Source: Oryzomicrobium sp.
GTDB taxonomy: Bacteria; Pseudomonadota; Gammaproteobacteria; Burkholderiales; Rhodocyclaceae
Assembly: GCF_021287045.1 (NCBI RefSeq)
Contig: NZ_JAJTBG010000006.1
Coordinates: 1 to 64,000 of the forward strand
Direction of reading: 5' to 3'
DNA length: 64,000 nucleotides
Below the pieces are notes generated by a model. It worked only from the letters and a program-made list of their open reading frames with translations, searched no databases and was not told where the DNA came from. A program made the position numbers and the translations under genes. This document shows positions 12,587-63,638 of this stretch, one piece after another; the stretch's first letter is position 1, and each line of letters begins with the position of its first letter.

Positions 12587-12968
12587 GGGGCGATTCTACG
12601 CAATGCGCGTCCCGGGGACACACCGGCCGATGGACGGAGATCGGCCATGGGCGCGGCGTTCGGCCAGGTCGGCGCACCGCGGGGGGCATCCGCACGGCTG
12701 GTGGTGCGGGCCTGTGGAGGCGGTGGCAAGCGGTGGCAGCCGGTCCGGCGGCGCCATGCAGGCGTGGCGCCGCGTCGATCCATTAATTTTCTTCAAGTAT
12801 TTGGAAGCGCCAGCCGCCAAACCCAACGACTGGCGCGGACCTTTGATTTCCCCCCGGTCGGATACTTGAATATTTTTAATATATCGCCCGGCCGGGCGGG
12901 CAATCCGGCGCCGAGCGACGGCCAACCTCCGACCGCCACCCTCTGGCGGCCTGCCGCCGACCGGCGTC
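12587..12968. other. Intergenic region with AT-rich nested inverted repeat
   Basis: 382 bp between two minus-strand genes, with no credible coding sequence. The notable content is an AT-rich stretch (12781-12885) that breaks the surrounding very high GC. It contains the nested inverted repeat annotated separately and one copy of the dispersed CTGGCGCGG sequence. Confidence 0.6.
12792..12870. repeat. Nested inverted repeat with CTGGCGCGG core
   Basis: Outer arms TTCAAGTAT (12792-12800) and ATACTTGAA (12862-12870) are perfect 9-bp inverted repeats, each extended outward by AT-rich sequence. Inside are a second inverted pair, GCGCCAG (12807-12813) and CTGGCGC (12830-12836). The inner right arm is the core of the dispersed repeat (ACTGGCGCGGACCTTT, 12829-12844) that recurs in other intergenic regions here. 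It could be a hairpin, a MITE-like remnant or an operator. Confidence 0.6.
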
Positions 12969-14171
12969 CTAAAGGATGCCCTGGGCCAGCAGGCCGTCCA
13001 CCTCGTCCATGGCGAAGCCCGCGTCGAGCAGGATGGCCCGGCTGTCCTGGCCTGGGGCCGGCGGTTCCCCTCCGGCGGTCAGGCGCACCCCGTCCATGAC
13101 GAAGGGGGAGGCGGCGGCGCCGCTGCGCAGCTCATCTCCGGCCAGCCCCCGGGCCTGGAACTGGGGCAGGTGCAGGGCTTCCTCCGGGGTCAGCACCGGG
13201 GTGACGCAGGCGTCCACCGTGGCAAAGCGTTCGGCCCAGTGGGCCAGGGGACGGCTGGCGATCAGGTCGGCCACCGCGGCGCGCAGGGCGTCGCGCTCGG
13301 CCCCGTCCAGGTGCTGCTGGCCGGCCCACTCCGGCCGCTCCACGGTGGCGCAGAAGGCCGCCCAGAACTTGGCCTCCAGGGCGCCCACCGCCAGGTGGCG
13401 GCCGTCCTGGGTGGCGTAGACGCCGTACCAGGGCAGCCCGCCGGTGAGCATTTCCTCGCCCCGGGGCGCGGCGGCGCCGGCCTCGGCGAGCAGGGGGGTC
13501 ATGTGGTGGGTGAGCACCACCTCGGCCATGGCCACGTCGAGCATCCGCCCCTGGCCGCTCTGCCGGGCGCCGTAGAGGGCGGCGACGATGGACAGGGCGG
13601 CCGGCAGGGCGCCACCGAGCAGGTCGCCGATTTGCAGGCTGGGAATGGCGGGCTGGACGGCGCCGGTGCTGGCGGTGCGCTCCAACACGCCGCTGACCGC
13701 CAGGTAGTTGAGGTCGTGGCCGGCCAGGTCGCGCCAGGGGCCGTCCTGGCCGTAGCCGGTGATGGCGCAATAGACCAGGCGCGGATTGACGGCCTTGAGC
13801 GCCTCGTAGCCCAGGCCGAGGCGGTCCATCACCCCGGGGCGGAAGCTTTCCACCAGCACGTCGGCGGATTCGGCCAGGCGGCGCAGCACGGCCTTGCCCA
13901 GGGGATGCTTGAGGTCCAGGCGCAGGGCGCGCTTGCCCCGGTTGAGGGCGCGGAAGAAGCGGCTGTCGGAATCGCGCAAGCCGGGAGGCGGCGGGCCCAT
14001 TTCCCGGGCGTAGTCGCCGGCGCCGGTGTCCTCGATCTTGATGATCTCGGCCCCCAGGTCGGCCAGGTGGCGGGTGGCCAGGGGGCCGGGCAGCAGCCGG
14101 GTCAGGTCGAGGACGCGCACACCGTGCAGCGGGGCGGCGGCGGATGATGTGGGGGAGGAAGGGCGGGTCAC
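12969..14171 (-). CDS. Class III (CaiB/BaiF family) CoA-transferase or acyl-CoA racemase
   Basis: 400 residues. The N-terminus LHGVRVLDLTRLLPGPLATRHLADLGAEIIKIE is the CaiB/BaiF/alpha-methylacyl-CoA racemase signature, followed by FRALNRGKRALRLDLKHP and YCAITGYGQDGPW. Family members move CoA between carboxylic acids or racemise 2-methylacyl-CoAs. The sequence looks closer to the racemase-like group. It is the last gene of a minus-strand cluster, 94 bp after the PaaK-like ligase and behind a Liv transporter, so it probably acts on the imported and activated acid. Specificity is not determinable here. Confidence 0.85.
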   Translation of the reverse strand: MTRPSSPTSSAAAPLHGVRVLDLTRLLPGPLATRHLADLGAEIIKIEDTGAGDYAREMGPPPPGLRDSDSRFFRALNRGKRALRLDLKHPLGKAVLRRLAESADVLVESFRPGVMDRLGLGYEALKAVNPRLVYCAITGYGQDGPWRDLAGHDLNYLAVSGVLERTASTGAVQPAIPSLQIGDLLGGALPAALSIVAALYGARQSGQGRMLDVAMAEVVLTHHMTPLLAEAGAAAPRGEEMLTGGLPWYGVYATQDGRHLAVGALEAKFWAAFCATVERPEWAGQQHLDGAERDALRAAVADLIASRPLAHWAERFATVDACVTPVLTPEEALHLPQFQARGLAGDELRSGAAASPFVMDGVRLTAGGEPPAPGQDSRAILLDAGFAMDEVDGLLAQGIL

Positions 14172-14265
14172 GGCAGCGACTCCAGGCAGGGCCGGATGAA
14201 AAACCCCGGGACCGCAGCGATGACGGGCCCGGGGTTGCGGAAAGGCATGGAAGGGCGGAGCGGGA

Positions 14266-15498
14266 TCAGTCGTACTTGCGGGCGTCCTCGATCACCTTGC
14301 CGTCGTTGGGCAAGGCGCCGGGGGCGGCCAGGACGACCTCGCCGCGCAGCTTGGTGATGTCGCGCACGCTGCCCACCAGGGCTTCGGCCAGGCCGTCGGG
14401 CCGGCTGTCGACCTCGCAATGCACCACCATGTTGTCCTGGCCGGAAGCGTTGTCCACCACGATGCGGGCGCGGCGCACCTCGGGATGGCGCTTGACCAGG
14501 GCCGCCACCTGGGAGGGATGGACGAACATGCCCTTGATCTTGGTGGTCTGGTCGGCCCGGCCCATCCAGCCCTTGATGCGGGTGTTGGTGCGGCCGCAGG
14601 GGGAGATGCCGGGCAGCACCGCCGACATGTCGCCGGTGGCGAAGCGGATCAGCGGGTAGTCCGGGTTGAAGGTGGTCACCACCACCTCGCCCACCTCCCC
14701 TTCGGCCACCGGGTCGCCGGTGCCGGGGCGGACGATCTCGACGATGATGTCTTCGTCGATGACCATGCCTTCCATGGCCGGGGTCTCGTAGGCGATCAGC
14801 CCCAGGTCGGCGGTGGCGTAGCACTGCAACACCTGCAATCCCCGCTCCTGGAAGCTCTTGCGTACCACCGGCAGCAGGGCCTCGCCGGACACCAGGGCCG
14901 TCTTCAGGCTGGAGATGTCGGCGCCCTGCTCGTCGGCCTTGTCGGCAATGATCTTGAGGAAGGACGGGGTGCCGACGTAGCCAGCCGGGCGCATCAGGGT
15001 GATGGCCTCAACCTGCTGGTCGGTCTGCCCCACCCCGGCGGGGAACATCGGGCAGCCCAGGCGGGCGATGCCGCCGGCGAAGATGAAGGCCCCCGGGGTG
15101 AAGTGAAAGGAAAAGCAGTTGTGCACCAGGTCGCCGGGGCGAAAGCCGGCGGCGTAGAGGGCCCGGGCCATGCGCCAGGGGTCCTGGCCCTTGCCTTCCG
15201 GCTCCAGGATCGGCCCGGGGGAGCAATAGACGTGGCGCAGGTTGCCAAGCGGCGTGGCGGCCAGGCCGCCGAAGGGCGGGGCCGCCTTCTGTCGCTCGAT
15301 CAGGTCGGACTTGTGGATCACCGGCAGGGCGGCCAGGGCCGCCCGGTTGTGGATGTCGGCCGGGTCGATGTCGGCCAGGATCTCGGCGAAATAGGGGGCG
15401 TGGGCCTTGGCATGGGCCGCCTGGCGTGGCAGGCGGTCGAACAGGGAACGCTCCCGCTCGGCGGGGTCGCGGGTTTCGAGAGAGTCGTAGTGGGGCAT
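14266..15498 (-). CDS. PaaK-like phenylacetate/aryl-CoA ligase (AMP-forming)
   Basis: 410 residues, similar in length to phenylacetate-CoA ligase PaaK (about 430). The PaaK-type N-terminus has ETRDPAERERSLFDRLPRQ and HAPYFAEIL. Internal motifs include VHNCFSFHFTPG, the QCYATADLGLIAYE segment, and FATGDMSAVLPG with the conserved Asp that contacts the AMP ribose. Reaction of the family: arylacetate or benzoate + ATP + CoA to acyl-CoA + AMP + PPi. The usual Thr/Ser-Gly-Thr-Thr-Gly loop of the wider superfamily is replaced here by YCSPGPILEPEGKG, so this is a divergent PaaK relative. It sits between livF and a CoA-transferase gene, supporting a role in acid activation after uptake. Confidence 0.82.
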   Translation of the reverse strand: MPHYDSLETRDPAERERSLFDRLPRQAAHAKAHAPYFAEILADIDPADIHNRAALAALPVIHKSDLIERQKAAPPFGGLAATPLGNLRHVYCSPGPILEPEGKGQDPWRMARALYAAGFRPGDLVHNCFSFHFTPGAFIFAGGIARLGCPMFPAGVGQTDQQVEAITLMRPAGYVGTPSFLKIIADKADEQGADISSLKTALVSGEALLPVVRKSFQERGLQVLQCYATADLGLIAYETPAMEGMVIDEDIIVEIVRPGTGDPVAEGEVGEVVVTTFNPDYPLIRFATGDMSAVLPGISPCGRTNTRIKGWMGRADQTTKIKGMFVHPSQVAALVKRHPEVRRARIVVDNASGQDNMVVHCEVDSRPDGLAEALVGSVRDITKLRGEVVLAAPGALPNDGKVIEDARKYD

Positions 15499-15658
15499 GG
15501 CAGCCTCGCGAAACGAAAGGGTTGGGCCGGTGCTGGTTGGGGGATGCGGGGTCTGGCGACGGCTTTCGCGGCGAACCGGGTCCGCTCCGGCGGCAACAGG
15601 GGAGCCGCGGGCCGGCCGCTGCCGGACCCGGGGCGCTGCGCCGTGCCGCGGGAGGGGA

Positions 15659-16489
15659 TCAGGAAAGCCAGCGCTTGCGCCGGCGGTAGTGCTTGACGTC
15701 GCGGAAGCTCTTGCGCCCGGCGGAGGACAGGCCCAGGTAGAACTCCTTGACGTCCTCGTTGCTGCGCAGCTCTTCGGCGGCGCCTTCCATGACGATGCGC
15801 CCCGATTCGAGGATGTAGCCGAAGTCGGCGTAGCGCAGGGCCACCATGGTGTTCTGCTCGGCGAGCAGGAAGCTGACGTTTTCCCGGGCGTTGAGGTCCT
15901 TCACGATCTCGAAGATCTCCTCGACGATCTGGGGCGCCAGGCCCATGGAGGGCTCGTCGAGCAGGATCATTTCCGGGCTGGCCATCAGCGCCCGGCCGAT
16001 GGCGCACATCTGCTGCTCGCCGCCGGAGGTGTAGCCAGCCTGGGACTTGCGCCGGGTCTTGAGGCGCGGGAAGTAGTGGTAGACCTTCTCCAGGCTCTCG
16101 TTGAGCTGGCCCCGGGAGATGGACTGGGTGTAGGCCCCGGTGAGGAGGTTCTCCTCGATGGTCAGGTGGCCGAAGCAGTGGCGCCCTTCCATCACCTGGA
16201 TGACGCCCTGGCGCACCAGGTCGGAAGGCGTCAGCTGGTCCACCCGGGAACCCTTGAATTCGACGCTGCCCTTGGTGACGTCGCCCCGTTCGGCGCGCAG
16301 CAGGTTGGAGATGGCCTTCAGGGTGGTGGTCTTGCCCGCGCCGTTGGCGCCGAGCAGGGCGACGATCTTGCCCTTGGGCACGGTCAGGGAAACCCCCTTC
16401 AGCACCAGGATCACGTGGTCGTAGATGACCTCGATGTTGTTGATGCTCAGGTAGTCGGCACCGGGTACTGCGGCAATGTGTGCGGTCAT
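15659..16489 (-). CDS. livF: Branched-chain amino acid/aromatic acid-type ABC transporter ATP-binding protein LivF
   Basis: 276 residues. One ABC domain with Walker A GANGAGKTT (about 47-55), signature SGGEQQM, Walker B MILLDEPSMGL and switch region LLAEQNT. LivF and LivG form the ATPase dimer of Liv (HAAT) importers at the inner membrane. The C-terminal extension (KSFRDVKHYRRRKRWLS) is longer and more basic than in amino-acid LivF proteins, a trait I associate with aromatic-acid-linked Liv systems. It lies 70 bp downstream of the binding-protein gene, from which it is separated by a strong stem-loop. Confidence 0.92.
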   Translation of the reverse strand: MTAHIAAVPGADYLSINNIEVIYDHVILVLKGVSLTVPKGKIVALLGANGAGKTTTLKAISNLLRAERGDVTKGSVEFKGSRVDQLTPSDLVRQGVIQVMEGRHCFGHLTIEENLLTGAYTQSISRGQLNESLEKVYHYFPRLKTRRKSQAGYTSGGEQQMCAIGRALMASPEMILLDEPSMGLAPQIVEEIFEIVKDLNARENVSFLLAEQNTMVALRYADFGYILESGRIVMEGAAEELRSNEDVKEFYLGLSSAGRKSFRDVKHYRRRKRWLS

Positions 16490-16520
16490 GTGTCGTCCCG
16501 TTTCACAGGTGGCGGGGCGG

Positions 16521-16544
16521 GCGCGGCGCCCAGGGGCGCCGCGC
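16521..16544 (-). promoter_or_regulatory. Intercistronic stem-loop between the binding-protein gene and livF
   Basis: A perfect 10-bp stem GCGCGGCGCC/GGCGCCGCGC with a 4-nt loop lies in the 70-bp gap after the binding-protein stop codon. No T run follows, so it is unlikely to be a full terminator. Such hairpins after binding-protein genes usually protect the upstream mRNA from 3' exonucleases and raise binding protein over the ABC subunits. Confidence 0.75.
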
Positions 16545-16559
16545 CGCTTTCCTCGCGGC

Positions 16560-17882
16560 TTACTTTTCCTTGGAGCAGTCGCGCGGGGTGATGCCCTTTT
16601 CCTTGGCGTACTGCTTGGCCGAGGCTTCGAACAGCGGGTGGATCAGGGACTTGTTGCCCTCGATCCAGTCGGACACGGGCACCCACTTGGCGCCGTCCCA
16701 CTGCTGGATCTTCACCTTGCCGGAACCCTCGTGGTTGCTGCAGGAGGTCTTCACCTCGGGCAGCAGGCCGGTGGCGCCCAGGGTCTTGATGCGGGCGTCG
16801 GTGACGTTGAGGTTCTCAAGACCCCAGCGCACCTGCTCGCCGGTCATGGACTTGCCCTTGCCGTACTTTTCCTGGGCCTTGTAGATGGCCTCCACCGACA
16901 CCACGGCGGCGGATACGCCGCGGTTGTAGAGGATGGTGCCGAGCTTGGACTTGTCCTTCAGGTTGCCGTGGCCGCCGGCATAGACCACCTTCTCGATGTC
17001 GGCGATGAGGGGCACGCTCTTGCCGGCCACGTTCCAGGTGGCGGACATGTAGCCCTTGGCGGCGTCGCCGGCGGGCACGGTGTCCTCCTCGGAGCCGGCC
17101 CACCAGGAGCCGACGATCTTGTCGCGGGGGTAGCCCACCTTCTGGGCGGCCTTCAGGGCGGTCTGGTTCATCACCCCCCAGCCCCAGAAGATCACGTAGT
17201 CGGGCTTTTCCTGGCGGATCTTGAGCCACTGGGCGCCCTGCTCGTTACCCGGGTGGGCCACGGGAATCTGCACCAGGTTGAACTTGTTCAGGCGGCTCTC
17301 GGCCTCCAGGGCGACGATCGGCTCCTTGCCGTAGGCGGAGTCGTGGTACAGGAAGACGATCTTCTTGCCGTCCAGGCTGCCCTTTTCCTTGTCCTTGAGG
17401 AACTTGACGATGGCCGAAGCCTGCATCTGGTAGGTGGTGATCAGGGGGAAGGCGTAGGGAAAGACCGAGCCGTCCACCGCATCGGTACGGCCGTAGCCCA
17501 TCATCGCCAGGGGCAGCTTGTCCTGGGCGGACTTGTCCACCAGGGCGTAGGAGATGCCGGTGGACATGGTGTGGATCGGACCGGCAGAAACCTTGGCCTT
17601 GGACTTGAGGCGCTCGTAGCACTCGACGCCCTTGGCGTTGTTGTACTCGGTTTCGCACTCTTCCCAGGTGATCTTCACCCCGTTGATCCCGCCGTTCTTC
17701 ATGTTGACGTAGTTCAGGTAGTCGATGAACCCGCCGTAGAAAGCCTCGCCGTTGGCGCCGTAGGGGCCGACGCGGTAGGAGGGGATGGGGAAGAACTGGT
17801 CGTCGGCCATAGCAGCGCCGGGAGCAGCAAACACGGCGGCCACGGCAGCGGCGCAGGCAACGGATTTGAATTGCTTGAACAT
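16560..17882 (-). CDS. Liv-type ABC transporter periplasmic substrate-binding protein
   Basis: 440 residues from the ATG at 17882, chosen because GAGGAG lies about 7 bp upstream and a clean signal peptide follows (MFKQFKSVACAAAVAAVF, cleavage near AMA-DD). The mature protein is a type I periplasmic binding fold of the LivJ/LivK kind: NGEAFYGGFIDYLNYVNMKNGG, KITWEECETEYNNAKGVECYERLK, and YVIFWGWGVMNQTALKAAQKVGYP. It is longer than amino-acid LivJ (about 370), like the ligand-binding proteins of Liv systems in aromatic- or acid-degradation clusters. It would deliver the substrate to LivHM. It is flanked on both sides by strong stem-loops within the operon. Confidence 0.9.
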   Translation of the reverse strand: MFKQFKSVACAAAVAAVFAAPGAAMADDQFFPIPSYRVGPYGANGEAFYGGFIDYLNYVNMKNGGINGVKITWEECETEYNNAKGVECYERLKSKAKVSAGPIHTMSTGISYALVDKSAQDKLPLAMMGYGRTDAVDGSVFPYAFPLITTYQMQASAIVKFLKDKEKGSLDGKKIVFLYHDSAYGKEPIVALEAESRLNKFNLVQIPVAHPGNEQGAQWLKIRQEKPDYVIFWGWGVMNQTALKAAQKVGYPRDKIVGSWWAGSEEDTVPAGDAAKGYMSATWNVAGKSVPLIADIEKVVYAGGHGNLKDKSKLGTILYNRGVSAAVVSVEAIYKAQEKYGKGKSMTGEQVRWGLENLNVTDARIKTLGATGLLPEVKTSCSNHEGSGKVKIQQWDGAKWVPVSDWIEGNKSLIHPLFEASAKQYAKEKGITPRDCSKEK

Positions 17883-17937
17883 GATGTGTCTCCTCTTCGT
17901 TGGTATGGAACTACACGGCGGAGGGGCCGCCCCTTCG

Positions 17938-18003
17938 ATACGGATTCGCTTTCGGCCGGCCAACGCGGCGGTGCGACGCCGGCCGGTTGAAGCGAAGCCG
18001 TAT
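17938..18003 (-). promoter_or_regulatory. Long stem-loop between livM and the binding-protein gene
   Basis: The two ends of this 66-bp segment are complementary: ATACGG then TTCGCTT then CGGCCGGC on the left, and GCCGGCCG then AAGCGAA then CCGTAT on the right. This gives about 21 paired positions with small bulges. It starts exactly at the livM stop codon. No T run follows. It probably marks an mRNA processing or stabilisation point upstream of the highly expressed binding-protein gene. Confidence 0.75.
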
Positions 18004-32966: not shown

Positions 32967-33935
32967 ATGCACTTCGACCTGACCGACCTGCGCCTGTTCA
33001 TCCACGTCGCCGAGAGCAAGAGCCTGACGCGGGGCGCCGAGCGCAGCCACCTGTCCCTGCCCGCCGCCAGCGCCCGGGTCAAGGAACTGGAAAACCAGGC
33101 CGGGGTGCGCCTGCTCTACCGGGCGCCCCGGGGCGTGGCCCTGACCCCGGCGGGGCAGAGCCTGCTCCAGCACGCCCGCATCCTGCTCGCCCAGATCGAA
33201 TACCTGAAGGGCGACCTGCAACGCTTCGGCGAAGGGGTCACCGGCCACATCCGGGTGTTCGCCAACACCACCGCGGTCACCGAATTCATGCCCGAGGTGC
33301 TGGCCACCTTCCTCAACGACCACCCCCAGGTGGACGTGGACCTGCAAGAGCGCCTCACCGGCGAGATCATCCGCGGCGTGCTCGACGGCACCACCGACCT
33401 GGGCATCGTCTCCGGCCCGATCGACGACGCCGGGCTGGAAAAGCACCACTTCTCCACCGACCGGCTGGTGCTGGCGTTGCCCCTGGGCCACCGCCTGGCC
33501 GGCGCCGGCAAGGTGCATTTTGCCGACACCCTGGAGGACGATTTCATCGGCCTGCACGAGGGCAGCACCTTGCAGACCTTCCTCAACCAGCTGATGCGCG
33601 ACGTGAAGCGCCAACTGCACATCCGCGTCCAGGTCAGCAACTTCGAATCCCTGTGCCGCATGGTGGAGGCCGGGGTGGGCATCGGCGTGGTGCCCGAATC
33701 GGCGGGCATCCGCCACAGCCGGACGATGAAGCTGGTGCTCAAGGAGCTGGACGAGCCCTGGGCCCTGCGCGAGCGCTACGTGCTGACCCGCCAGGGCGCC
33801 GCCCTGCCCAGCTTCACCCAGGCCCTGATCGACACCATCCTGCGCCTCAACCGGACCCTGGCCGCCCCCGGCGGCACGGCCCCGGCGGTCGCCAAGGCCA
33901 AGCCGCCGCGCCGCCCCAAGGCCGCCAAGGCCTGA
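32967..33935 (+). CDS. LysR-family regulator of the itaconate-type operon
   Basis: 322 residues from the ATG at 32967; upstream in-frame sequence is not LysR-like. The N-terminal winged helix-turn-helix reads FDLTDLRLFIHVAESKSLTRGAERSHLSLPAASARVKELE. The C-terminal effector domain has VRVFANTTAVTEFMPEVLATFL-like periplasmic-binding topology (GHIRVFANTTAVTEF, GIVSGPIDDAGLEKHHF, ESLCRMVEAGVGIGVVPES). The last 25 residues are Lys/Ala/Pro-rich. Divergent position next to the hydratase gene and a palindromic site between them indicate autoregulation plus activation of the operon, with itaconate or itaconyl-CoA as likely inducer. A LysR gene (RipR/ItcR type) is divergent in the Pseudomonas cluster as well. 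Confidence 0.9.
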   Translation: MHFDLTDLRLFIHVAESKSLTRGAERSHLSLPAASARVKELENQAGVRLLYRAPRGVALTPAGQSLLQHARILLAQIEYLKGDLQRFGEGVTGHIRVFANTTAVTEFMPEVLATFLNDHPQVDVDLQERLTGEIIRGVLDGTTDLGIVSGPIDDAGLEKHHFSTDRLVLALPLGHRLAGAGKVHFADTLEDDFIGLHEGSTLQTFLNQLMRDVKRQLHIRVQVSNFESLCRMVEAGVGIGVVPESAGIRHSRTMKLVLKELDEPWALRERYVLTRQGAALPSFTQALIDTILRLNRTLAAPGGTAPAVAKAKPPRRPKAAKA

Positions 33936-34044
33936 CCGGAAACCCAAGCGGGGCGCGGACCTTCAGCCCCCCTGCCCGGAGCGCCGCGCGGGGCGTGGAG
34001 TTCCGGACCACCTGGCTGGAAACGCCCGACTGGCGCGGGGTTCC
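33934..34044 (+). repeat. Two direct copies of the dispersed CTGGCGCGG repeat
   Basis: Copy one (33934-33966) contains CCGGAAACCC and then GGGCGCGGACCTTCAG, starting at the lysR stop codon. Copy two (34014-34044) contains CTGGAAACG and then ACTGGCGCGGGGTTCC. Both share the layout C-N-GGAAA, 8-11 bp, then TGGCGCGG or GGGCGCGG and a T-rich tail, as seen in the other intergenic copies. Confidence 0.65.
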
Positions 34045-34160
34045 AACCCGGGCCTTTGAGCCCTCCCCCGCCAGCGCCGGCGCCCCGGCACAGGAGTACA
34101 CTGGCGCCCATCCCCCGGGCCCGGCCCGGGCCTGCCGTCCGCCCCCCGCCTGTCCGCACC

Positions 34161-35522
34161 GTGCCCCACTCCGCTTTCGGCCGTCCGGCCGCCGCCTGCC
34201 GCAACTCCCGCAACTCCTGCCTTTCCCTCGTTGCCCCCGCGCCCCTGCTGCGCCGCCTGCCCCTGCTGCTGGCCCTGGGCCTGGCCGCCTGTGCCTCGTC
34301 GCCCCCGGCGCCGGTGGTGACGCCGGGCCGCCCTGCCACGCCGCCGGCTGCCAGCGCCCCCACCCCCGCTCCGGTATCGGGCGCCAGCGTTACCCCGGTG
34401 CAGCCGCCGCCGGCAGTGAGCGCCGTGCCCCTGCCGCCGCCCCCCGCCACCTCCGTGCCGGCCGTGCCCGCCGTACCGCCGCCGGACCCGGCGACCCTGG
34501 AACGGGAAGCCCGGGCCCAGGCGCTGCGCCTGCTGCCGGCGGGCATCGCCGACCGGCCCGGCTGGGCCGGCGACATCGCCGCCGCCCTGGTGGCCCTGCG
34601 CCTGCCGGCCAACCCGGCCAACCTCTGCGCCACCATCGCCGTGATCGAGCAGGAATCGAGCTTTCAGGCCGACCCGGCGGTGCCCGGGCTGAACAGGATC
34701 GCCTGGAAGGAAATCGAGGTGCGGCGCAGCCGCTACGGCATTCCCAAGCTGGTGCTGGACGCCGCCCTGGCCAAGACCTCGCCGGACGGGCGCAGCTACA
34801 AGGCGCGTATCGACGCCCTGAAGACCGAGCGGCAGATGAACGAGCTGTTTTCCGACATGATCGCCGAGCTGCCCGCCGGCCGGACCCTGCTGGCCGACTA
34901 CAACCCGGTGCGCACCGGCGGGCCGATGCAGGTCAGCGTCGAGTTCGCCAAAACCCAGGTGCGCGAGAAGCCCTACCCCTACGCCCGCCCAGGCATGGAC
35001 GTGCGCCGCGAGGTGTTCACCCGGCGCGGCGGGGTGTATTTCGGCATGGCCATCCTGCTCGACTACCCCGCGTCCTACACCCAGGCGGTCTACCGCTTCG
35101 CCGATTTCAACGCCGGGCGCTACGCCAGCCGCAACGCCGCCTTCCAGGCCGCCGTGGCCAAACTGGCCGGCAAGCCCCTGGACCTGGACGGAGACTTGCT
35201 GCGCTACGACAAGGGCCAGCCGTCCGCCACCCCCAGCGCCACCCGCAACGCCCTGGTCGGCCAGGCCCGGCGCCTGGGCATGAATGCCGCCGCCATCGAC
35301 CGGGACCTGGCCCTGGAAAAGACCTACGGCTTCGCCCAGACCCCTCTCTACCAGCGGGTCTACGCCCTGGCCGACCAGGCCGCCGGCCGCCCCCAGCCCC
35401 GGGAGGCCCTGCCGCGCATCGACCTGAAGAGCCCGAAGATCCAGCGCAAGCTCACCACCGAATGGTTCGCCCGCCGGGTGGACGGCCGCTATCAGCAATG
35501 CCTGGCGCGCAGCCAGGCGTGA
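34161..35522 (+). CDS. DUF1615 family lipoprotein
   Basis: 453 residues from the GTG at 34161; a TTG at 34056 would add 35 Pro-rich residues. A hydrophobic segment ends in the lipobox LAAC (Cys44), then a Pro/Ala-rich linker of about 70 residues. The conserved body (ALRLPANPANLCATIAVIEQESSFQADPAVPG, ADYNPVRTGGPMQVSVEFAK, RRGGVYFGMAILLDYPASY, RFADFNAGRYASRNAAFQ) matches the DUF1615 family. The IEQESSF motif recalls the catalytic Glu region of lytic transglycosylases, so peptidoglycan binding or cleavage is conceivable but unproven. It is probably attached to the inner face of the outer membrane. Confidence 0.8.
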   Translation: MPHSAFGRPAAACRNSRNSCLSLVAPAPLLRRLPLLLALGLAACASSPPAPVVTPGRPATPPAASAPTPAPVSGASVTPVQPPPAVSAVPLPPPPATSVPAVPAVPPPDPATLEREARAQALRLLPAGIADRPGWAGDIAAALVALRLPANPANLCATIAVIEQESSFQADPAVPGLNRIAWKEIEVRRSRYGIPKLVLDAALAKTSPDGRSYKARIDALKTERQMNELFSDMIAELPAGRTLLADYNPVRTGGPMQVSVEFAKTQVREKPYPYARPGMDVRREVFTRRGGVYFGMAILLDYPASYTQAVYRFADFNAGRYASRNAAFQAAVAKLAGKPLDLDGDLLRYDKGQPSATPSATRNALVGQARRLGMNAAAIDRDLALEKTYGFAQTPLYQRVYALADQAAGRPQPREALPRIDLKSPKIQRKLTTEWFARRVDGRYQQCLARSQA

Positions 35523-35614
35523 GGGCGGGATTCGTGGGATTCATTGAATTCACGGGATTTGCGGGCGCGGAACTCGCCGGGTTCATGCCCACCCCATAGG
35601 CCAGCACCACCGCC

Positions 35615-36292
35615 ATGAACTACCTCGCCCACGCCGTCCTCGCCGGCCCGGACCCGCTGCTGCGCCTGGGCGGGCTGATGGGGGATTTCGTCAAAGGGCC
35701 CCTGCCGCCCGGCACGGCGGGGATTGCAGGCGCCGCGCCCCTGCCGGAGCGGCTCGTCCTCGGCCTGCGCCTGCACCGGGCCATCGACGCCTATGCCGAG
35801 ACCCACCCGGCCTTTCGCGCCAGCCGCGCCCGGGTCAGTGCGGAACGGCGCCGGGTGGCCGGAATCATGGTGGATCTGTTCTACGACCACTTCCTCGCCC
35901 GGGACTGGGCGGCGTGGCCCACCGCCCCCGGCTTCGCCGCCTTCGGCCACAACATCGACGTGGCACCGGCCGGCAGCGGCCTGGCGGCCTACTGCGCCGC
36001 CACCTACGCCCTGTTCGACGCCCACGCGGCCTTGCTGCCGCCCCGGCTGGCGGAGGTGGCGCCCCTGATGGCGGCCCACGACTGGCTCGGCTCCTACGCC
36101 GAGGCGGCGACCATCGCCTTGGCTCTGGACCGCATGGCGGCGCGGCGTTTTTCCCACCCCACGCCCCTGGCCGGTGGAGGGGCCGAACTGCTGATGGACT
36201 ATGACGGGTTCGCAGCGGACTTCCGCGCCTTCTTCGCCGATGCCCTGGAGTTCGCCCGCCAGTGGCGGGAACGGGAAGGACTGGCGGACTGA
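35615..36292 (+). CDS. acpH: ACP phosphodiesterase (AcpH)
   Basis: 225 residues. The N-terminus MNYLAHAVLAGPDPLLRLGGLMGDFVKG is the AcpH (DUF479) signature, including the His and Asp metal ligands of this HD-related family. GLRLHRAIDAYAETHPAF and MVDLFYDHFLARDW follow, with more His/Asp ligands. The enzyme removes 4'-phosphopantetheine from holo-acyl carrier protein in the cytoplasm. It is slightly longer than the E. coli protein (193). Single gene, plus strand, followed by a long noncoding island. Confidence 0.9.
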   Translation: MNYLAHAVLAGPDPLLRLGGLMGDFVKGPLPPGTAGIAGAAPLPERLVLGLRLHRAIDAYAETHPAFRASRARVSAERRRVAGIMVDLFYDHFLARDWAAWPTAPGFAAFGHNIDVAPAGSGLAAYCAATYALFDAHAALLPPRLAEVAPLMAAHDWLGSYAEAATIALALDRMAARRFSHPTPLAGGGAELLMDYDGFAADFRAFFADALEFARQWREREGLAD

Positions 36293-37076
36293 GCACGGCC
36301 CGGGGGATTGCCGATGGAGCCCTAGGCCCCGTCAAACCCCGCGCCAATAAACGATCTCCAGGCAGGCATCGCCGAACCCCGCGCCAGTAGCCGAGATTGA
36401 AGGCACGATCATGGAGAACAAGTATTGGAGCGGGTCTTCAGCCTCCCTAGCCTGGAGCCTTAGTGGGGCACTGCTCAGTGCTGCCCTCACTGGGCGCCTC
36501 AGCAACCGGAAGCGTTGTATTTCGCCTGGACGGCGAGCCACTTTCTGTCCGGCGACAGGAAGTAGCCAAAGAACGCCCGAACTGTACAGTGCGCTCCCCC
36601 GCCGGCAGGCCGATGAAACTGGCCTACCGGTACCCTGCGCTACTCGCCCGGGACGGGGGCTGCGGAACTCGGCCTACGGCCTCAGACAGTCCTCGCCCTT
36701 TCCCGTCCCGGCCTGCGTTGCTCGGCGGGGGAGAAGGGCACAGGGGGCGCACGGTTTTGGCACTTCCCGGAAAGCCACGGCTGGCGGGGTGTTTGAAGGT
36801 ATGCCTTCGGATAACAGCGCCAGTATTAGCTTTCCTGGCATATACCTTGTAGCGCGAGTATTGGCGGGGGTTTCCAGGCCTTACGCAAAAATTTTGCGCT
36901 GCATACGCGCCGACCATCCTGCTGCGTTCTCTGCGCCTCTGCAAACTCAGCGTTGAAAGCGGTTCAGCCGGTTTTCTTGGTGCTCCCTTGGTTTCCTGGA
37001 TGCTTTGGAGGTGCGCTTTTCAGTGCTTGGCACGTCGCGTCGATAATTCCCTTCCCCCCTGGTGCCACGCCCGCAG
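36293..37076. repeat. 784-bp noncoding island packed with repeats and hairpins
   Basis: No reading frame here looks like a protein. Copies of the dispersed CTGGCGCGG family lie at 36331-36364 (inverted), 36372-36400 (inverted), 36421-36440, 36764-36795, 36816-36840 (inverted) and 36857-36879. Between them are a hairpin CTTTCTGTC/GACAGGAAG at 36541-36562 followed by AGTAGCCAAAGAACGC, and a GCGGAACTCGGCCTACGG-type stretch at 36661-36678. These last two resemble, from memory, a repeat widespread in betaproteobacterial intergenic DNA. CGCAAAAATTTTGCG at 36885-36899 is a perfect dyad. Confidence 0.65.
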
Positions 37077-38114
37077 TTACACCCCCCACAGGGCCGGTTC
37101 GGCCATGGCCAGGACCTGCTGTTGCAGCTCGCCGATGCGCGCCTGCCAGTAGGCGTGGGTGTTGAACCAGGGGAAGGCGGCGGGAAAGGCCGGGTCGTTC
37201 CAGCGCCGCGCCAGCCAGGCGCTGTAGTGCAGCAGGCGCAGGGTGCGCAGGGCTTCCACCAGGCGCAGCTCCCGGGGGTCGAAGTCGCAGAAGTCCTCGT
37301 AGCCGGCCAGCACGTCGGCCAATTGCCGGGACATTTCCTGGCGGTCGCCGGAAAGCAGCATCCACAGGTCCTGCACCGCCGGGCCCATGCGGCTGTCGTC
37401 GAAATCCACGAAATGGGGCCCGGGGGCGTCACCCTCGTCGTTCCACAAAATGTTGCCGCCGTGGCAGTCGCCGTGCAGGCGCAGCCGGCGCACTTCGCCG
37501 GCCCGCTCGAAGGCCTGGGCCACCCCGTCCAGGGCGGCATCGGCCGCATCGCGCCAGGGGGCGAGCAGGTCGGCGGGGAGGAAGTCGTGGCCGAGCAGCC
37601 AGTCCCGGGAGTCGTAGCCGAAGCTGCCGATGTCCAGGGCCGGCCGGTGCTGGTAGTCGGCCACCCGGCCGACGGCGTGGATGCGGCCGAGAAAGCGGCC
37701 GATCCATTCCAGGGTGGCCGCATCGCCCAGTTCCGGCGCCCGGCCGCCGCGCCGGGGAAACAGGGCGAAGCGGTGGCCGGCGTGGTGGTGCAGGGTGGCG
37801 CCATTCAATTCCAGGGCGGCCACCACCGGGATTTCCCGGGCCGCCAGCTCGCTGGCGAAGGCGTGCTCTTCCAGGATGGCGGCGTCGCTCCAGCGCTGGG
37901 GCCGGTAGAACTTGGCGATCAGGGGCGGGGCGCCGGGAGGCTCGTCGATGCCCACCTGGTAGACCCGGTTCTCGTAGCTGTTGAGTGCCAGCAGGCGCCC
38001 GTCGGGCACCAGGCCGACGGATTCGAGGGCGTCCAGGATCAGGTCCGGCCCCAGGTCGGCGTAGGGAGTGCCGGCGGCGGAGGCGGCGGGAAGGTGGTCG
38101 GCGGGAGGGGTCAT
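37077..38114 (-). CDS. srkA: Stress response serine/threonine kinase SrkA (YihE/RdoA family)
   Basis: 345 residues, close to E. coli SrkA (328). The kinase-like APH fold is shown by ALNSYENRVYQVGIDEP (nucleotide loop), LIAKFYRPQRWSD with the ATP-binding Lys, the catalytic loop LRLHGDCHGGNILW (His-Gly-Asp-Cys-His, then Asn), and metal-binding PHFVDFDDSRMGPAVQDLW. SrkA phosphorylates proteins on Ser/Thr and protects against MazF-linked death and oxidative stress. It is divergent from the mutarotase gene. Confidence 0.92.
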   Translation of the reverse strand: MTPPADHLPAASAAGTPYADLGPDLILDALESVGLVPDGRLLALNSYENRVYQVGIDEPPGAPPLIAKFYRPQRWSDAAILEEHAFASELAAREIPVVAALELNGATLHHHAGHRFALFPRRGGRAPELGDAATLEWIGRFLGRIHAVGRVADYQHRPALDIGSFGYDSRDWLLGHDFLPADLLAPWRDAADAALDGVAQAFERAGEVRRLRLHGDCHGGNILWNDEGDAPGPHFVDFDDSRMGPAVQDLWMLLSGDRQEMSRQLADVLAGYEDFCDFDPRELRLVEALRTLRLLHYSAWLARRWNDPAFPAAFPWFNTHAYWQARIGELQQQVLAMAEPALWGV

Positions 38115-55940: not shown

Positions 55941-56087
55941 TGCGGGTTTCCGGTTGGTGCGAAAGGCGGGAATTATGGAGGAAAGCGCCGGGGGATTCAC
56001 CCCGGCCCCGCCCGCGGGGCCCGTTTCGCGCCGGCCGCCGGGGGCGCGACATTCACGCCGCGCGCCCAAACCCAAGGCAGGACGGGC

Positions 56088-56174
56088 GTTTCCGGGCAGC
56101 CTTGGACAAACACCGCCACTGGCGCGGACCTTCGGCATACCCTCGCCAGGATCGAGGACTGGCGCGGCTTTCCA
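56088..56174. repeat. Paired copies of the dispersed CTGGCGCGG/TTTCCGGGCA repeat
   Basis: The first copy has GTTTCCGGGCAG, 22 bp, GCGCGG and ACCTTCGGCATACC (56088-56132). The second has CCAGGATCGAGG, ACTGGCGCGG and CTTTCCA (56146-56174). The first aligns without gaps to the region 63558-63613, although the 22-bp spacer differs in sequence. Confidence 0.7.
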
Positions 56175-56224
56175 CGGTGCAACATGGCGGCGCCATGCCA
56201 CTCCCGCCGTCGCCCCTCCACGTT

Positions 56225-58568: not shown

Positions 58569-58610
58569 CCCCGGCCCCGCCCGGCCCGGGCGGGAGCAGC
58601 GGGGCGCCCG

Positions 58611-59276
58611 TCACGCATCCGTGCCGGCCTTGGCCGAACCTGCGGCCGGAGCGGACGGCGAAAGGCTCGAAACGGACGCACCGGCGGAAGCGGCCCGGGT
58701 CAGTACCGGGGTGTCGGCGTCTAGGGACTTGATGTCGCCGGACAGCTCGCCGCCCTCGTCGATGAGAATCTTGCCGTAGCGGATGGTGCCGCTGACCCGG
58801 CCGGTTTCATGGATCACCAGTTGCTGGCGGGCGGTCAGTTCGCCCTCGAAGGTGCCGTACACCTCGGCCACGTCGATGCTCACCTTGCCGCTGAACACCC
58901 CCTTTTCGGCGATGTGCATGACCCGGCTGTCCATGGTGGCCTCGACCCGGCCTTCCACCACCAGGGTGTCGCAGTCGAGGATTTCCGCCCCCTTCAGCTT
59001 CACGTCGGGGCCGACGATCAGGCGGTTGCCGCCCACTGCGTCGGTCAGCCCCGGCTTGGCGGCGGACTTGCCCGCATCGGCCGCATTCAGGGGGCTGCTG
59101 GCGGTGGCCGGCCCGGCGGGAGCGCGCCCGGGAGTGCCGAGGGGCGCCAGGCCGACCGGCGCCGCCACCGCAGCGCCAGAGGCGCCGGACAGGCGGGTGT
59201 CCCGGGGGGCCAGGGCGTCGTTGCGCAGGGGGGCGGTTTCCTCGCGTTTGCCGAAGAAGCTTTGCTTGTTGAGCAT
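58611..59276 (-). CDS. Bactofilin
   Basis: 221 residues. A Pro/Ala-rich N-terminal tail of about 80 residues precedes the bactofilin beta-helix (about 84-190): LIVGPDVKLKGAEILDCDTLVVEGRVEATMDSR, GVFSGKVSIDVAEVYGTFEGEL and GRVSGTIRYGKILIDEGGELSGD. The C-terminal tail is disordered. Bactofilins polymerise without nucleotide and organise cell shape, stalks or polar proteins. Often they neighbour an M23 peptidase; none is present here. Confidence 0.92.
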   Translation of the reverse strand: MLNKQSFFGKREETAPLRNDALAPRDTRLSGASGAAVAAPVGLAPLGTPGRAPAGPATASSPLNAADAGKSAAKPGLTDAVGGNRLIVGPDVKLKGAEILDCDTLVVEGRVEATMDSRVMHIAEKGVFSGKVSIDVAEVYGTFEGELTARQQLVIHETGRVSGTIRYGKILIDEGGELSGDIKSLDADTPVLTRAASAGASVSSLSPSAPAAGSAKAGTDA

Positions 59277-59666
59277 GGAAGGTCCTTAAGGTGGAGTGGC
59301 AAAGTCGAACCGTCGCGGCAGCCGCCGCAACGCCATCCCGACCTATGGCAAGCAGCGTGCCACTTCACGCCAAGCCCCGCGTTTACAGCGGTTCACCTCA
59401 CGATTGCCACCCGATCGCCGACGATAGGCGCAAATAGTGTCGGGCCAGCCCGACGCCGAATCCATGCATCCGGCCTAGTTGCTGTTTTTTCGCGGATTTT
59501 CCTGTCGGGCCGGAGCGACAGACAGAACGTTCACGACCGCCGGGGCGCCTCGCCCCCGGGCGCCGCCCCGATCCAGAACAAAAAAGAAACGGCCACGGGG
59601 GCTGACGCAGCCGTGGCCGAATAACTACCGAGGGACACAACTAATCGGTCGGATGCGACCTTCGGG
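59277..59666. other. Intergenic region containing the icmF terminator
   Basis: 390 bp between icmF and the bactofilin gene, both on the minus strand. It contains the icmF terminator and should contain the bactofilin promoter. No gene is visible. Confidence 0.55.
59578..59619 (-). terminator. Rho-independent terminator of icmF
   Basis: On the minus strand CGGCCACGG (59619-59611), a 12-nt loop and CCGTGGCCG (59598-59590) are followed by TTTCTTTTTT. It lies about 48 bp after the icmF stop. Confidence 0.88.
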
Positions 59667-62600
59667 TCACATGTTGCGCCGGTACTGGCCGCCCACGTCG
59701 TAGAGGGCGGTGGTGATCTGCCCCAGGGAACAGACCTGGACCGCATCCACCAGCACCTCGAACAGGTTGCCGTTGGCGATGGCCGTCTGTTGCAGACGTT
59801 CCAGCATGGGGCCGGATTGGGCCTGGTGGCGGGACTGGAAGTCGCGCAGGCGCTGGATCTGGGACTGCTTTTCCTCCTCGGTGGAACGGGCCAGCTCGAT
59901 CTCCACCTGGGCGCTGCCCTTGGGATTGAGGAAGGTGTTTACGCCGATGAGGGGCAGGGAGCCATCGTGCTTCTTGTGCTCGTAGTGCAGCGACTCCTCC
60001 TGGATCTTGCCGCGCTGGTAGCCGGTTTCCATGGCGCCGAGCACCCCGCCGCGGGCGGCGATGGCCTCGAACTCCTTGAGCACCGCCTCTTCCACCAGGT
60101 CGGTCAGCTCGTCCATGATAAAGGCGCCCTGGTTGGGGTTCTCGTTCTTGGCCACGCCCCATTCCCGGTTGATGATGAGCTGGATGGCCATGGCGCGGCG
60201 CACCGACTCCTCGGTCGGGGTGGTGATGGCCTCGTCGTAGGCGTTGGTGTGCAGGGAGTTGCAGTTGTCGTAGATGGCGATCAGGGCCTGCAACGTGGTG
60301 CGGATGTCGTTGAAATCCATCTCCTGGGCGTGGAGCGACCGGCCCGAGGTCTGGATGTGGTACTTGAGTTTCTGGCTGCGCTCGTTGGCGCCGTACTTGT
60401 TCTTCATCGCCACGGCCCAGATGCGCCGGGCCACCCGACCGATCACCGAGTATTCCGGGTCCATGCCGTTGCTGAAGAAGAACGACAGGTTGGGGGCGAA
60501 GTCGTCGATGTGCATGCCCCGGGCCAGGTAGCTCTCCACGTAGGTGAAGCCGTTGGCCAGGGTGAAGGCCAGCTGGGAGATGGGGTTCGCGCCCGCCTCG
60601 GCGATGTGGTAGCCGGAGATCGACACCGAGTAGAAGTTCTGCACCTTGTTGTGCACGAAGAACTCCTGGATGTCGCCCATCATCTTCAGGGCGAACTCGG
60701 TGGAGAAGATGCAGGTGTTCTGGCCCTGGTCTTCCTTGAGGATGTCGGCCTGCACGGTGCCGCGCACGGTGGACAGCACCCACTCGCGGATCTTCTCGGC
60801 CTCGTCCTCGGTGGGCGCACGGCCGTTGTCGGCCTTGAACTTGTCGATCTGCTGGGCGATGGCGGTGTTGAAGAACATCGCCAGGATGATCGGCGCCGGG
60901 CCGTTGATCGTCATCGACACCGAGGTGGACGGGGCGCACAGGTCGAAGCCGTCGTAGAGCACCTTCATGTCGTCCAGGGTGGCGATGGACACGCCGGAGT
61001 TGCCGATCTTGCCGTAGATGTCGGGGCGCTCGTCCGGGTCGCAGCCGTACAGGGTGACCGAGTCGAAGGCCGTCGACAGGCGGTGGGCCGGCATGCCCTC
61101 GGACACCTTCTTGAAGCGGCGGTTGGTGCGGAAGGCGTCGCCCTCGCCGGCGAACATGCGGGTCGGGTCCTCGCCCTCGCGCTTGAAGGCGAACACGCCG
61201 GCGGTGTAGGGGAAGGAGCCGGGCACGTTCTCGCGCATCAGGAAGCGCAGCACCTCGCCGTCGTCGCCGAACTTGGGCAGCACCACCTTCTTGATCTTGG
61301 TGCCGGAGAGGGATTCGGAGACCAGCTTGGTGCGGATTTCCTTGTCGCGGATCTTCACCACGTACTCGTCGCCGGAATAGGCCTGTTGCATCTCGGGCCA
61401 CTGCTCCAGCAGCTTCTTGGCCTTGGGATCGAGCTGGCCGTCCTTCCAGGTCAGCACCTCGTCCACGTCGGCCACCGGCTTGTCACAGCCCTTGAGCAGA
61501 TCGCGGGAGATGCGCAGGGACTGGCGTTCCCGGGCCAGCTTGACCTGCTCGTCGGTGTGGGCGTGGTAGCCGCGCAGGGTCTCGGCGATCTCGGCCAGGT
61601 AGCGCACCCGCTTGGGCGGCACGATGGCCTGCTGGTAGGAGGACTGCTTGACCGCCACCTTGGGCAGTTTGCCCGGCTGGAGGGTCAGCCCCAACTCGGC
61701 CAGGCGCTCGATGAGAGCCTGGTACAGGGCGGTGACGCCGTCGTCGTTGAAGTGGGCGGCCATGGTGCCGAACACGGGCATGGCGTCGGTGGGCTCGGCG
61801 AAGCGCTCCCGGTTGCGCTGGTACTGCTTGCGCACGTCGCGCAGGGCATCCTCGGCGCCCTTGCGGTCGAACTTGTTGATGGCCACGAAGTCGGCGAAGT
61901 CGAGCATGTCGATCTTCTCCAGTTGGCTGGCGGCGCCGAACTCGGGGGTCATCACGTACAGCGAAGCGTCCACGTGGGGGACGATGGCGGCGTCGCCCTG
62001 GCCGATGCCGGAGGTCTCGACGATGAGCAGGTCGAAGCCGGACACCTTGCAGGCGGCGATCACCTCGGGCAGGGCGGCGGAAATCTCGCTGCCGGTGTCC
62101 CGGGTGGCCAGGGAGCGCATGTAGATGTTGGCCCCCTCGATGGCGTTCATGCGGATGCGGTCGCCCAGCAGGGCACCGCCGGTGCGCTTGCGCGACGGGT
62201 CGATGGAGACGATGCCGAGCTTGAGCTGGTCGTCCTGGTCGAGGCGGAAGCGGCGCACCAGCTCGTCGGTGAGCGACGATTTACCGGCGCCGCCGGTGCC
62301 GGTGATGCCCAGGGTCGGCGTGGCGGTCTGGGCGGCAGCCTCGCGCAGGGCGGCCTTCACATCCTCGCCGTAGGCGCCGTTCTCCAGGGCGGTGATGACC
62401 TTGGCCAGGGTGCGCCGGTCGCCGGAGCGCAGCCCGGCCAGCACGGCCTCGACGCCCTGGGGCGCGGCGGCGGTCAGGTCGTAGTCGGAGGTTTCCACCA
62501 CCTCGTTGATCATGCCCTGCAAACCCAGGGACTGGCCGTCGCCGGGGGAGTAGATGCGGGTCACGCCGTAGTCGTGCAGCTCGGAAATCTCGGAGGGCAC

Positions 62601-62933
62601 GATCACCCCGCCGCCGCCGCCGAACACCTTGATGTTCTCGCCGCCGTGCTGGCGCAGCAGGTCGATCATGTACTTGAAGTACTCGACATGACCGCCCTGG
62701 TAGGAGGTGATGGCGATGCCCTGCACGTCTTCCTGCAGCGCCGCGTTGACGATGTCGCCCACGGACCGGTTGTGCCCCAGGTGGATCACCTCGGCGCCGG
62801 TGGATTGCAGGATGCGGCGCATGATGTTGATCGAGGCGTCGTGGCCGTCGAACAGGGCGGCGGCGGTGACGAAGCGCACCTTGTGGCGGGGCTTGTAGGG
62901 GACGAGCTTGTGGGCAACGGAAAGGTCGGTCAT
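59667..62933 (-). CDS. icmF: Fused isobutyryl-CoA mutase IcmF
   Basis: 1088 residues from the ATG at 62933; an earlier start adds 18 residues. The IcmF domain order is clear. First, an N-terminal B12-binding domain with the cobalt-ligand His31 in [14 protein letters not shown] and the [13 protein letters not shown] loop. Second, a MeaB-like G-protein domain with Walker [10 protein letters not shown] (212-220), the [20 protein letters not shown] segment and [15 protein letters not shown]. Third, the TIM-barrel mutase half with [27 protein letters not shown] and [16 protein letters not shown]. IcmF interconverts isobutyryl-CoA and butyryl-CoA, with side activity on isovaleryl/pivalyl-CoA, and its G-domain loads and protects the cofactor. 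It links valine catabolism to beta-oxidation and PHA. No B12 gene is adjacent. Confidence 0.95.
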
Positions 62934-63048
62934 GGGCGAGGTTCCGGAAGGCAAGCACTGCGGTCGAACCGGGCCGCCATCCTGCACGGGGCGGCCGCAA
63001 CGGGCGGGCCCGGGAAATCCGGGCCGGAGAGTGATGGCACCTTAGCTA

Positions 63049-63064
63049 ACGTTGACGTCAACGT
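63049..63064. promoter_or_regulatory. Perfect 16-bp operator-like palindrome upstream of icmF
   Basis: ACGTTGACGTCAACGT is a perfect dyad. An extra half-site GTCAAC overlaps it at 63063-63068. It lies 116 bp upstream of the icmF start. The TTGACGTCAA centre resembles sites described for MerR-type LiuR regulators of branched-chain acyl-CoA genes, from memory; the matching regulator is not in the window. Confidence 0.6.
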
Positions 63065-63130
63065 CAACTTAACCGAATCGCAAGCCATCGCTCTTACTGC
63101 AACCCAGGCCCGGCGCGGTTGGGGTAGTTT

Positions 63131-63421
63131 TCAGGGAGTCGGGGTCAGGCCCGAACCGTGATGGGGCGCGGTACGGCCGGCCGGCGCATGGCCGTGGTCG
63201 GCCTGGGGGCGCTGGGGCAGCATGAACCAGGTGAGCAGGCTGGAGCCGGCGCAGATCAGCCAGAACAGGAAGAAGCCCAGGGAATAGGTGGCGTAGGACG
63301 ACATTTCCACCGTCCCGCCGAGGAAGTACAGCTGCTGCGGGTTGATCACCCAAAAGAAGAGGAATTCGGCGACCGCCGCGGCAACGAAGGATGGCCACAG
63401 CACCCAGATGACCTTGTTCAT
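63131..63421 (-). CDS. Small two-helix membrane protein, unknown function
   Basis: 96 residues from the ATG at 63421, with GGGAGG 7 bp upstream. Two hydrophobic segments (VIWVLWPSFVAAAVAEFLFFWVI and TYSLGFFLFWLICAGSSLLTWFML) make two membrane helices. The C-terminus is polar and His-rich (QADHGHAPAGRTAPHHGSG). I do not recognise it; the layout resembles small proteins of respiratory or transport modules. It is upstream of icmF on the same strand but separated from it by the palindrome and about 200 bp. Confidence 0.75.
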   Translation of the reverse strand: MNKVIWVLWPSFVAAAVAEFLFFWVINPQQLYFLGGTVEMSSYATYSLGFFLFWLICAGSSLLTWFMLPQRPQADHGHAPAGRTAPHHGSGLTPTP

Positions 63422-63536
63422 GGAACGCCTCCCGTCAGGTTGTGGGGTACTGGGTATGACCGGGCAGGCGGCGCGGAAGTTGCGCGCGACGCTGCCGATC
63501 CGGCAACGATTGGACGGCTCCCGAAAAGCGGCCAAG

Positions 63537-63638
63537 CCAAACCCCGCGCCAGATAATGGTTTCCGGGCAGTGGCTGCAAAGAACAAGGCAGGGCGCGGCT
63601 TTCCAGGCACACCTGCTGGAAAGGCCCACCCTGCCTTG
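63537..63638. repeat. Head-to-head dispersed repeats forming a terminator-like hairpin
   Basis: An inverted copy (AAACCCCGCGCCAG ... GGTTTCCGGGCA, 63537-63569) is followed by a forward part (GGGCGCGGCTTTCCAGGCAC, 63591-63610). The forward part folds with downstream DNA: CAAGGCAGGG (63584-63593) pairs with CCCTGCCTTG (63629-63638), and CTTTCCAG (63599-63606) with CTGGAAAG (63616-63623). On the minus strand it starts 17 bp past the stop of the flavin-binding gene and is followed by TTCTTTG, so it may serve as that gene's terminator. Confidence 0.7.

What the first reader, a model, noticed from the sequence alone, without database searches (positions are those of the whole stretch)
12828..63613. 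A dispersed family of short intergenic repeats built on CTGGCGCGG and TTTCCRGGCA
At least 13 copies occur, all outside the genes I call. Members: 12828-12845, 33934-33966, 34014-34044, 36331-36364, 36372-36400, 36421-36440, 36764-36795, 36816-36840, 36857-36879, 56088-56132, 56146-56174, 63537-63569, 63585-63613. A full unit reads TGCC-N-GGAAA, 6-10 bp, then YTGGCGCGG, then a T/C-rich tail often ending TTTCCRGGCA. The unit is therefore itself an imperfect palindrome. Two units from 36.3 and 63.5 kb match at 31 of 40 aligned positions by hand count. Units are commonly paired, in direct or inverted orientation. This looks like a REP/REPIN-like or MITE-derived family specific to this lineage.
Basis: seen in the sequence. 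Interest (0 to 1): 0.72.

Follow-up and report, generated by a model that had tools for sequence, protein, structure and literature searches.

The report
Three-palindrome 120-bp dispersed intergenic repeat
The scattered short repeats are pieces of a roughly 120-base DNA element, built of three 40-base near-palindromes in a fixed register, that is estimated to occur, whole or in part, close to two hundred times per genome, mostly near the ends of genes, with no sign of the transposase usually held responsible for such repeats.

Summary
In detail: the 13 listed copies are real and far above chance. What was missed is their organisation. Units are 40-bp imperfect palindromes spaced exactly 40 bp centre to centre (65 of 126 flanks at pitch 40; 0-3 at each other pitch from 25 to 59), and 51 of 77 arrays span three register positions. 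The object is a ~120-bp, three-palindrome element; the window holds five, plus three lone units. Extrapolated array loci, whole or partial: 194 in the own genome, 181 in its congener G001. Diverged relatives with another favoured core occur in a second genus, g21. Arrays lie near gene 3' ends, with an excess in convergent gaps. They resemble REP/BIME repeats, but REP-defining tests fail: no GTAG/CGTC tag excess; no Y1 (RAYT-type) gene in three of four clear carriers, and the one in the fourth is unlinked. Arm covariation is weak to absent, no target duplication is visible, and substitution divergence is no lower than in other intergenic DNA. Best reading: an old, non-autonomous, dispersed palindromic element, spread by an unidentified or lost enzyme and now mostly inherited vertically; the spread itself is inferred. 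New variant of a known kind.

The parts
33932..34050 (-). three-unit element (centres 33951 weak, 33991, 34031), between two + strand genes; its first bases overlap the end of the called gene that stops at 33935
   Evidence: R2 70.3 bits (part of R2's training set); register; array at the syntenic place in G001, 3141424-3141504
36326..36444 (-). three-unit element (centres 36346, 36386, 36426), in a convergent gap
   Evidence: R2 60.7 bits (in training set); the G001 orthologue has the same unit orientations
36762..36879 (-). three-unit element (centres 36782, 36822, 36862), same convergent gap, next to a different ~300-bp repeat
   Evidence: R2 55.4 bits (in training set); the composite recurs at other loci
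56060..56179 (+). three-unit element (centres 56080 very weak, 56120, 56160)
   Evidence: R2 55.3 bits (in training set); register
63536..63651 (+). three-unit element (centres 63551, 63591, 63631 very weak)
   Evidence: R2 65.1 bits (in training set); register
12808..12850 (+). lone unit, centre 12831
   Evidence: R1 18.2 bits; the gap is 371 bp here and 85 bp in G001, which has no unit there
   Evidence: R1 18.9 bits
   Evidence: R1 17.7 bits

Best explanation
The repeats are copies, many of them decayed or partial, of a ~120-bp non-autonomous element made of three 40-bp imperfect palindromes (unit consensus close to TGCCYGGAAAnnCCnCGACTGGCGCGGnnTTTCCRGGCA) in fixed register. Shown: the 40-bp pitch, the usual number of three, intergenic and 3'-end placement, restriction to one genus plus a diverged counterpart in another genus, and absence of a linked Y1/RAYT gene. 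Inferred: copies spread as a discrete unit (the most similar copies at different loci are also alike in the linkers between units and not outside the element); the route is recognition of the folded palindromes by an enzyme acting in trans, unidentified or lost; present copies are mostly old and vertically inherited, and survive where a transcribed hairpin is harmless or mildly useful, behind genes.
For: Pitch control: 65 of 126 flanks at 40, 0-3 elsewhere. Spans of 77 arrays: 1:14, 2:6, 3:51, 4:3, 5:3; in 32 of the 51 all three units score >=0 bits. Linkers, not used to choose the arrays: identity 0.516 in the 20 most similar of 1266 non-orthologous pairs against 0.341 in all, while outside the element it is 0.279 and 0.288 (those 20 were ranked by identity over 121 positions, 22 of them linker). 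Best non-orthologous identities 0.69-0.72, mean 0.50, sd 0.058. R2 at E<=0.001: 155 and 157 matches in G000 and G001, 16 in G021, no more than 2 in each of the other 17 genomes. At E<=0.01 the g21 genomes have 29, 45 and 3 (layout). Single strands fold better than mononucleotide shuffles, mean z -2.6 and -2.9, 42 elements. Convergent gaps hold 28 of 63 intergenic arrays against 22% of intergenic bases; in 400 kb of G105, 8 of 9 intergenic loci are convergent.
Against: No target-site duplication and no clean empty site between the two species. No transposase was found, and only the Y1 family was searched. Of 12 syntenic gap loci with units, 7 hold units in both species, so recent movement is not shown. 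The high information inside -60..+60 and low outside is partly built in, since arrays were chosen for units at those places and oriented on that stretch; likewise the inverted-repeat ends. 26 of 77 arrays are not three-unit.
Confidence: 0.55

Rival explanations
1. A selected host element: six half-sites alternating about every 20 bp (two helical turns) bind a chromosomal protein, or three hairpins act as a 3'-end, bidirectional-termination or mRNA-protection module; copies persist because they work.
For: Exact pitch although copies are only half identical. Indel events per 100 aligned bases between the two species: 1.70 in arrays (18 events), 3.22 in other intergenic DNA, inside aligned blocks only. 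3'-end and convergent placement. Related layout with another core in g21.
Against: Substitution divergence of arrays (0.220) is no lower than that of other intergenic DNA (0.188). The lower divergence of the unit core (12 of 158, against about 25% in flanks; 20 of 32 units alignable) is inflated by choosing units that match the core. Covariation of arms is weak to absent. Five of 12 syntenic gap loci have units in one species only. No T-run terminator in 33000-37200 (that region only).
Confidence: 0.28
2. A genuine REP/REPIN family mobilised by a RAYT.
For: Palindromic extragenic repeats in high copy, clustered near gene 3' ends; one Y1 gene in G000 and one in G011, which has 6 weak R2 matches; a strand difference between chromosome halves for 94 of the 157 G001 matches (16+/28- and 30+/20-, p 0.025, origin assumed near base 1).
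Against: No Y1 gene in G001, G021, G105, G150. No R2 match in the fetched 3-kb or smaller loci around the Y1 genes of G000, G002, G011, G013, and no R1 match in that of G000. No GTAG or CGTC excess. Triplets rather than doublets.
Confidence: 0.1
3. Local tandem repeats made by slippage of a 40-bp unit.
For: Constant 40-bp pitch; two near-identical arrays 201 bp apart in contig C7 (0.90 identity).
Against: All four orientation combinations (17 -+, 14 --, 12 +-, 7 ++), a usual number of three, and similarity of units and linkers between distant loci.
Confidence: 0.04

Closest known systems
REP / palindromic units of enterobacteria and their BIMEs
   Same: About 40-nt imperfect palindromes, extragenic, high copy, regular spacing, near gene 3' ends (in part recalled; PMC2817692 abstract read).
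   Different: No GTAG excess, no linked RAYT, a usual three-unit entity. The resemblance may be convergence.
REPINs (PMC3116915, abstract and section list read)
   Same: Clustered palindromic units treated as one dispersing entity, predicted to form hairpins.
   Different: REPINs are inverted doublets tied to RAYTs; here three units in any orientation and no RAYT link.
CGTC-tagged REPs without a dedicated transposase (PMC3733652: abstract, passages and section 14 read)
   Same: Short palindromic repeats lacking a known transposase, between unidirectional and convergent ORFs.
   Different: CGTC is below expectation here (28 seen, 60 expected). Dimer distances in that paper are variable; here the pitch is 40 bp.
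Bacterial MITEs of ~100-130 bp (ERIC-type and similar; recalled, PMC2759123 seen only in a search listing)
   Same: Length, intergenic dispersal, inverted-repeat ends.
   Different: Internal three-palindrome periodicity; no target duplication found; parental transposon not searched.

Membership tests
REP (GTAG or CGTC tagged) | 20-40 bp palindromic repeat, high copy, extragenic | tested here: met
   the dyad is imperfect
REP (GTAG or CGTC tagged) | unpaired GTAG or CGTC tetranucleotide at one foot | tested here: not met
   81-nt windows on 153 units: GTAG 21 seen, 20.4 expected; CTAC 29, 24.8 (13 of them at one place inside the unit); CGTC 28, 60.2; GACG 35, 58.5
REP with RAYT | cognate Y1 transposase flanked by the repeats | tested here: not met
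   PF01797: 0 in G001, G021, G105, G150; 1 in G000, with no R1 or R2 match in its 3.3-kb locus
REPIN | inverted doublet as the dispersing unit | tested here: not met
   51 of 77 arrays span three positions, 6 span two
BIME | regularly spaced units | tested here: met
BIME | alternating orientation | tested here: inconclusive
   29 of 50 neighbours at 40 bp alternate; orientation is uncertain because units are near-palindromic
MITE | terminal inverted repeats | tested here: inconclusive
   ~20 bp in the consensus, but expected of any array of palindromic units
MITE | target-site duplication | tested here: not met
   42 non-redundant elements, k of 2-6, 8 and 9, 121 end choices each; old copies may have lost it
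MITE | related autonomous transposon | not tested
   only PF01797 was searched
structured RNA family | compensatory base pairs | tested here: not met
   52 units: covariation score 0.195 against 0.187 in shuffles (136 of 500 as high), though double changes are 64 against 50.1 (28 of 500) and the score exceeds the slid versions (0.065-0.139). 42 elements: alifold gives no consensus structure; the junction of units 2 and 3 is the best centre, +31 pairs over expectation, against -29 at unit 3. Rfam at gathering scores finds three tRNAs in the window

The most novel reading that the evidence does not exclude
A class of mobile or self-propagating three-hairpin elements whose 3 x 40-bp geometry is kept while the recognised core sequence drifts between genera, handled by an enzyme that is not a RAYT.
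Probability: 0.2. Interest if true: 0.7.

Novelty: new variant of a known kind. Interest (0 to 1): 0.5.

Why it matters
REP-like repeats are usually explained by RAYTs. A high-copy family with a fixed triplet geometry, lineage-specific cores and no RAYT in three clear carrier genomes makes it testable whether such repeats can spread or persist without one, and whether a precise 40-bp pitch is kept by selection.

Tried and rejected
RNA hairpin kept by compensation: little support. Rfam: only tRNAs. RAYT link: not found. Target duplications: none. Clean empty sites: intergenic DNA of the two species is too diverged. Plasmid relatives of one array and of the 300-bp companion repeat: no match. Literature: searches returned 0 papers (53 rested on a guessed genus name); I saw only the titles and abstract openings of the 11, 12 and 12 listed papers (77 and 78 had 2307 and 53 matches) and nothing of this kind; subscription papers are not covered. 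A >30-copy repeat at C6:167254-167430 looks by eye like a chemoreceptor signalling-domain coding stretch (sequence) and was dropped. My notebook calls the own Y1 gene broken; that was too strong: the domain match has no internal stop, the ORF is 138 codons, truncation was not tested.

Rows dropped before counts: 4 of 39 pattern sites before the unit matrix (C6:47640, C9:190491, C9:344702, C9:261310); 4 of 57 sites (C6:48833, C6:47085, C9:343461, C9:260556); 1 of 53 units before alignment A1 (C9:261351); clusters without a unit of 16 bits; units under 18 bits as anchors and genic ones; 12 of 32 units; 9 of 51 elements as near-duplicates.
Full report
Observation. The 13 intervals are real. Pattern CTGGCGCGGNNTTYC occurs 68 times in the own genome (reversed control 0) and 76 times in G001, the only same-genus genome listed, against 0-8 in the 59 others (reversed control there 0-2). 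A stricter pattern gives 36 and 44, and at most one in each of the other 197 genomes of the family sample; 11 of these have one.

Architecture. A matrix from 35 sites showed neighbouring units exactly 40 bp apart (25 of 31 neighbours under 300 bp; 50 of 59 in 1.26 Mb). With 63 anchor units and 126 flanks, 65 have a unit at 40 bp; no other pitch from 25 to 59 gives more than 3. In 77 arrays the spans are 1:14, 2:6, 3:51, 4:3, 5:3 (a position counts as a unit above the 99.5th percentile of random positions, so some are weak: in 32 of the 51 all three score >=0 bits, and in one the middle is missing). By source, three-position spans are 12 of 23 in the own C5 and C6 stretches, 30 of 41 in G001 and 9 of 13 in other own loci, which were picked by pattern. 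The 51 triplets, oriented by expectation-maximisation, align without gaps. Mean information is 0.5-1.1 bits per column inside -60..+60 and about 0.2 outside, partly by construction. Independent of that choice, a fourth unit is rare (6 of 77), and the 22 linker positions are more alike in the most similar non-orthologous copies than in all pairs, while the outside is not. A profile of the triplet (R2) finds five full elements in the window, all in its training set, plus partial matches.

Relatives. R2 gives 155 and 157 matches in G000 and G001 at E<=0.001. The search scores about 150 candidates per genome, which makes these low, but some places count on both strands, which makes them high. It gives 16 in G021 (genus g21) and 0-2 in the other 17 genomes tried. 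At E<=0.01 the g21 genomes G021, G105 and G150 have 29, 45 and 3, and five genomes of two other genera have 2-6 weak matches. Many of the 40 g21 copies read show three GGA..TCC modules at about 40 bp, with another favoured core in G105 (GGCAATAGGGACGCCATTCTTC); others are partial, and several are ~11 bp shorter between units 2 and 3. In 400 kb of G105 a profile seeded with 11 G105 copies, at least two from that stretch, finds 10 distinct loci (reversed-sequence control 0); 9 are intergenic and 8 of these lie between convergent genes. Extrapolated array loci, lone units included: 194 in the own genome (23 in 464 kb) and 181 in G001 (41 in 800 kb).

Placement. 123 of 138 units are intergenic, by a codon-usage gene caller written here. 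Of 69 arrays, 28 are convergent, 30 tandem, 5 divergent, 6 genic; convergent gaps are 22% of intergenic bases (p 7e-5) and divergent ones are under-used (p 0.014). These p values are too strong, as orthologous arrays of the two species, and two arrays in one gap, count apart. Adjacent gene ends are 86 three-prime (median 50 bp) and 42 five-prime (median 124 bp).

Evolution. Copies at different loci are on average half identical; five orthologous pairs have 0.69-0.84. At 12 syntenic gaps with units, 7 hold them in both species, 3 only in the own genome, 2 only in G001; further units lie inside aligned blocks. Inside aligned blocks, array substitution divergence is 0.220 against 0.188 in other intergenic DNA, while indel events are 1.70 against 3.22 per 100 aligned bases, from 1061 aligned array bases and 18 events. 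The indel deficit hints at constraint on spacing.

Structure and mobility. Within units, pairing equals what column composition predicts at most offsets; offset 8 exceeds it (14 against 8.9 of 35). Over 52 units the covariation score is near its shuffles, though above the slid controls. Over 42 elements no consensus RNA fold results; the junction between units 2 and 3 shows the largest surplus of pairs, unit 3 a deficit, which may reflect subfamilies. Single strands fold better than mononucleotide shuffles. There is no target duplication. In G001 the strand of 94 listed elements differs between chromosome halves (p 0.025); skew in the fetched parts roughly fits an origin near base 1. I treat this as a hint only.

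Transposase. PF01797 finds one gene in G000, none in G001, G021, G105 or G150, and one each in G002, G011 and G013; G011 also has 6 weak R2 matches. No R2 match lies in the fetched loci around these four genes. Other transposase families were not searched.

Interpretation. It works like a REP/BIME-type dispersed palindromic element but fails tests that define REPs and REPINs (tag, RAYT, doublet). The mechanism of spread is inferred, not shown. The main rival is a selected host element at gene 3' ends; its best support is the exact pitch and the placement, its main weakness the ordinary substitution rate.

Noticed in passing
window 36463-36760: A different ~300-bp repeat with several copies in G001 (about 77-80% identity over the longer matches); in the window and at two G001 loci read (L076, L080) a unit array follows it; at the orthologous G001 locus it lies in the opposite orientation. 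No plasmid match.
   Followed up: partly
G000:C9:130204-130533 (L031): The only Y1_Tnp (PF01797) gene found in the own genome, a 138-codon ORF with no R1 or R2 match in its 3.3-kb locus.
   Followed up: partly
G000:C7:44122-44442: Two three-unit arrays 201 bp apart with 0.90 identity, apparently a local duplication.
   Followed up: no
G105 loci L200, L203, L205, L209, L212, L213: A shorter subtype in genus g21, lacking ~11 bp between units 2 and 3, more alike than the others by eye and possibly younger.
   Followed up: partly
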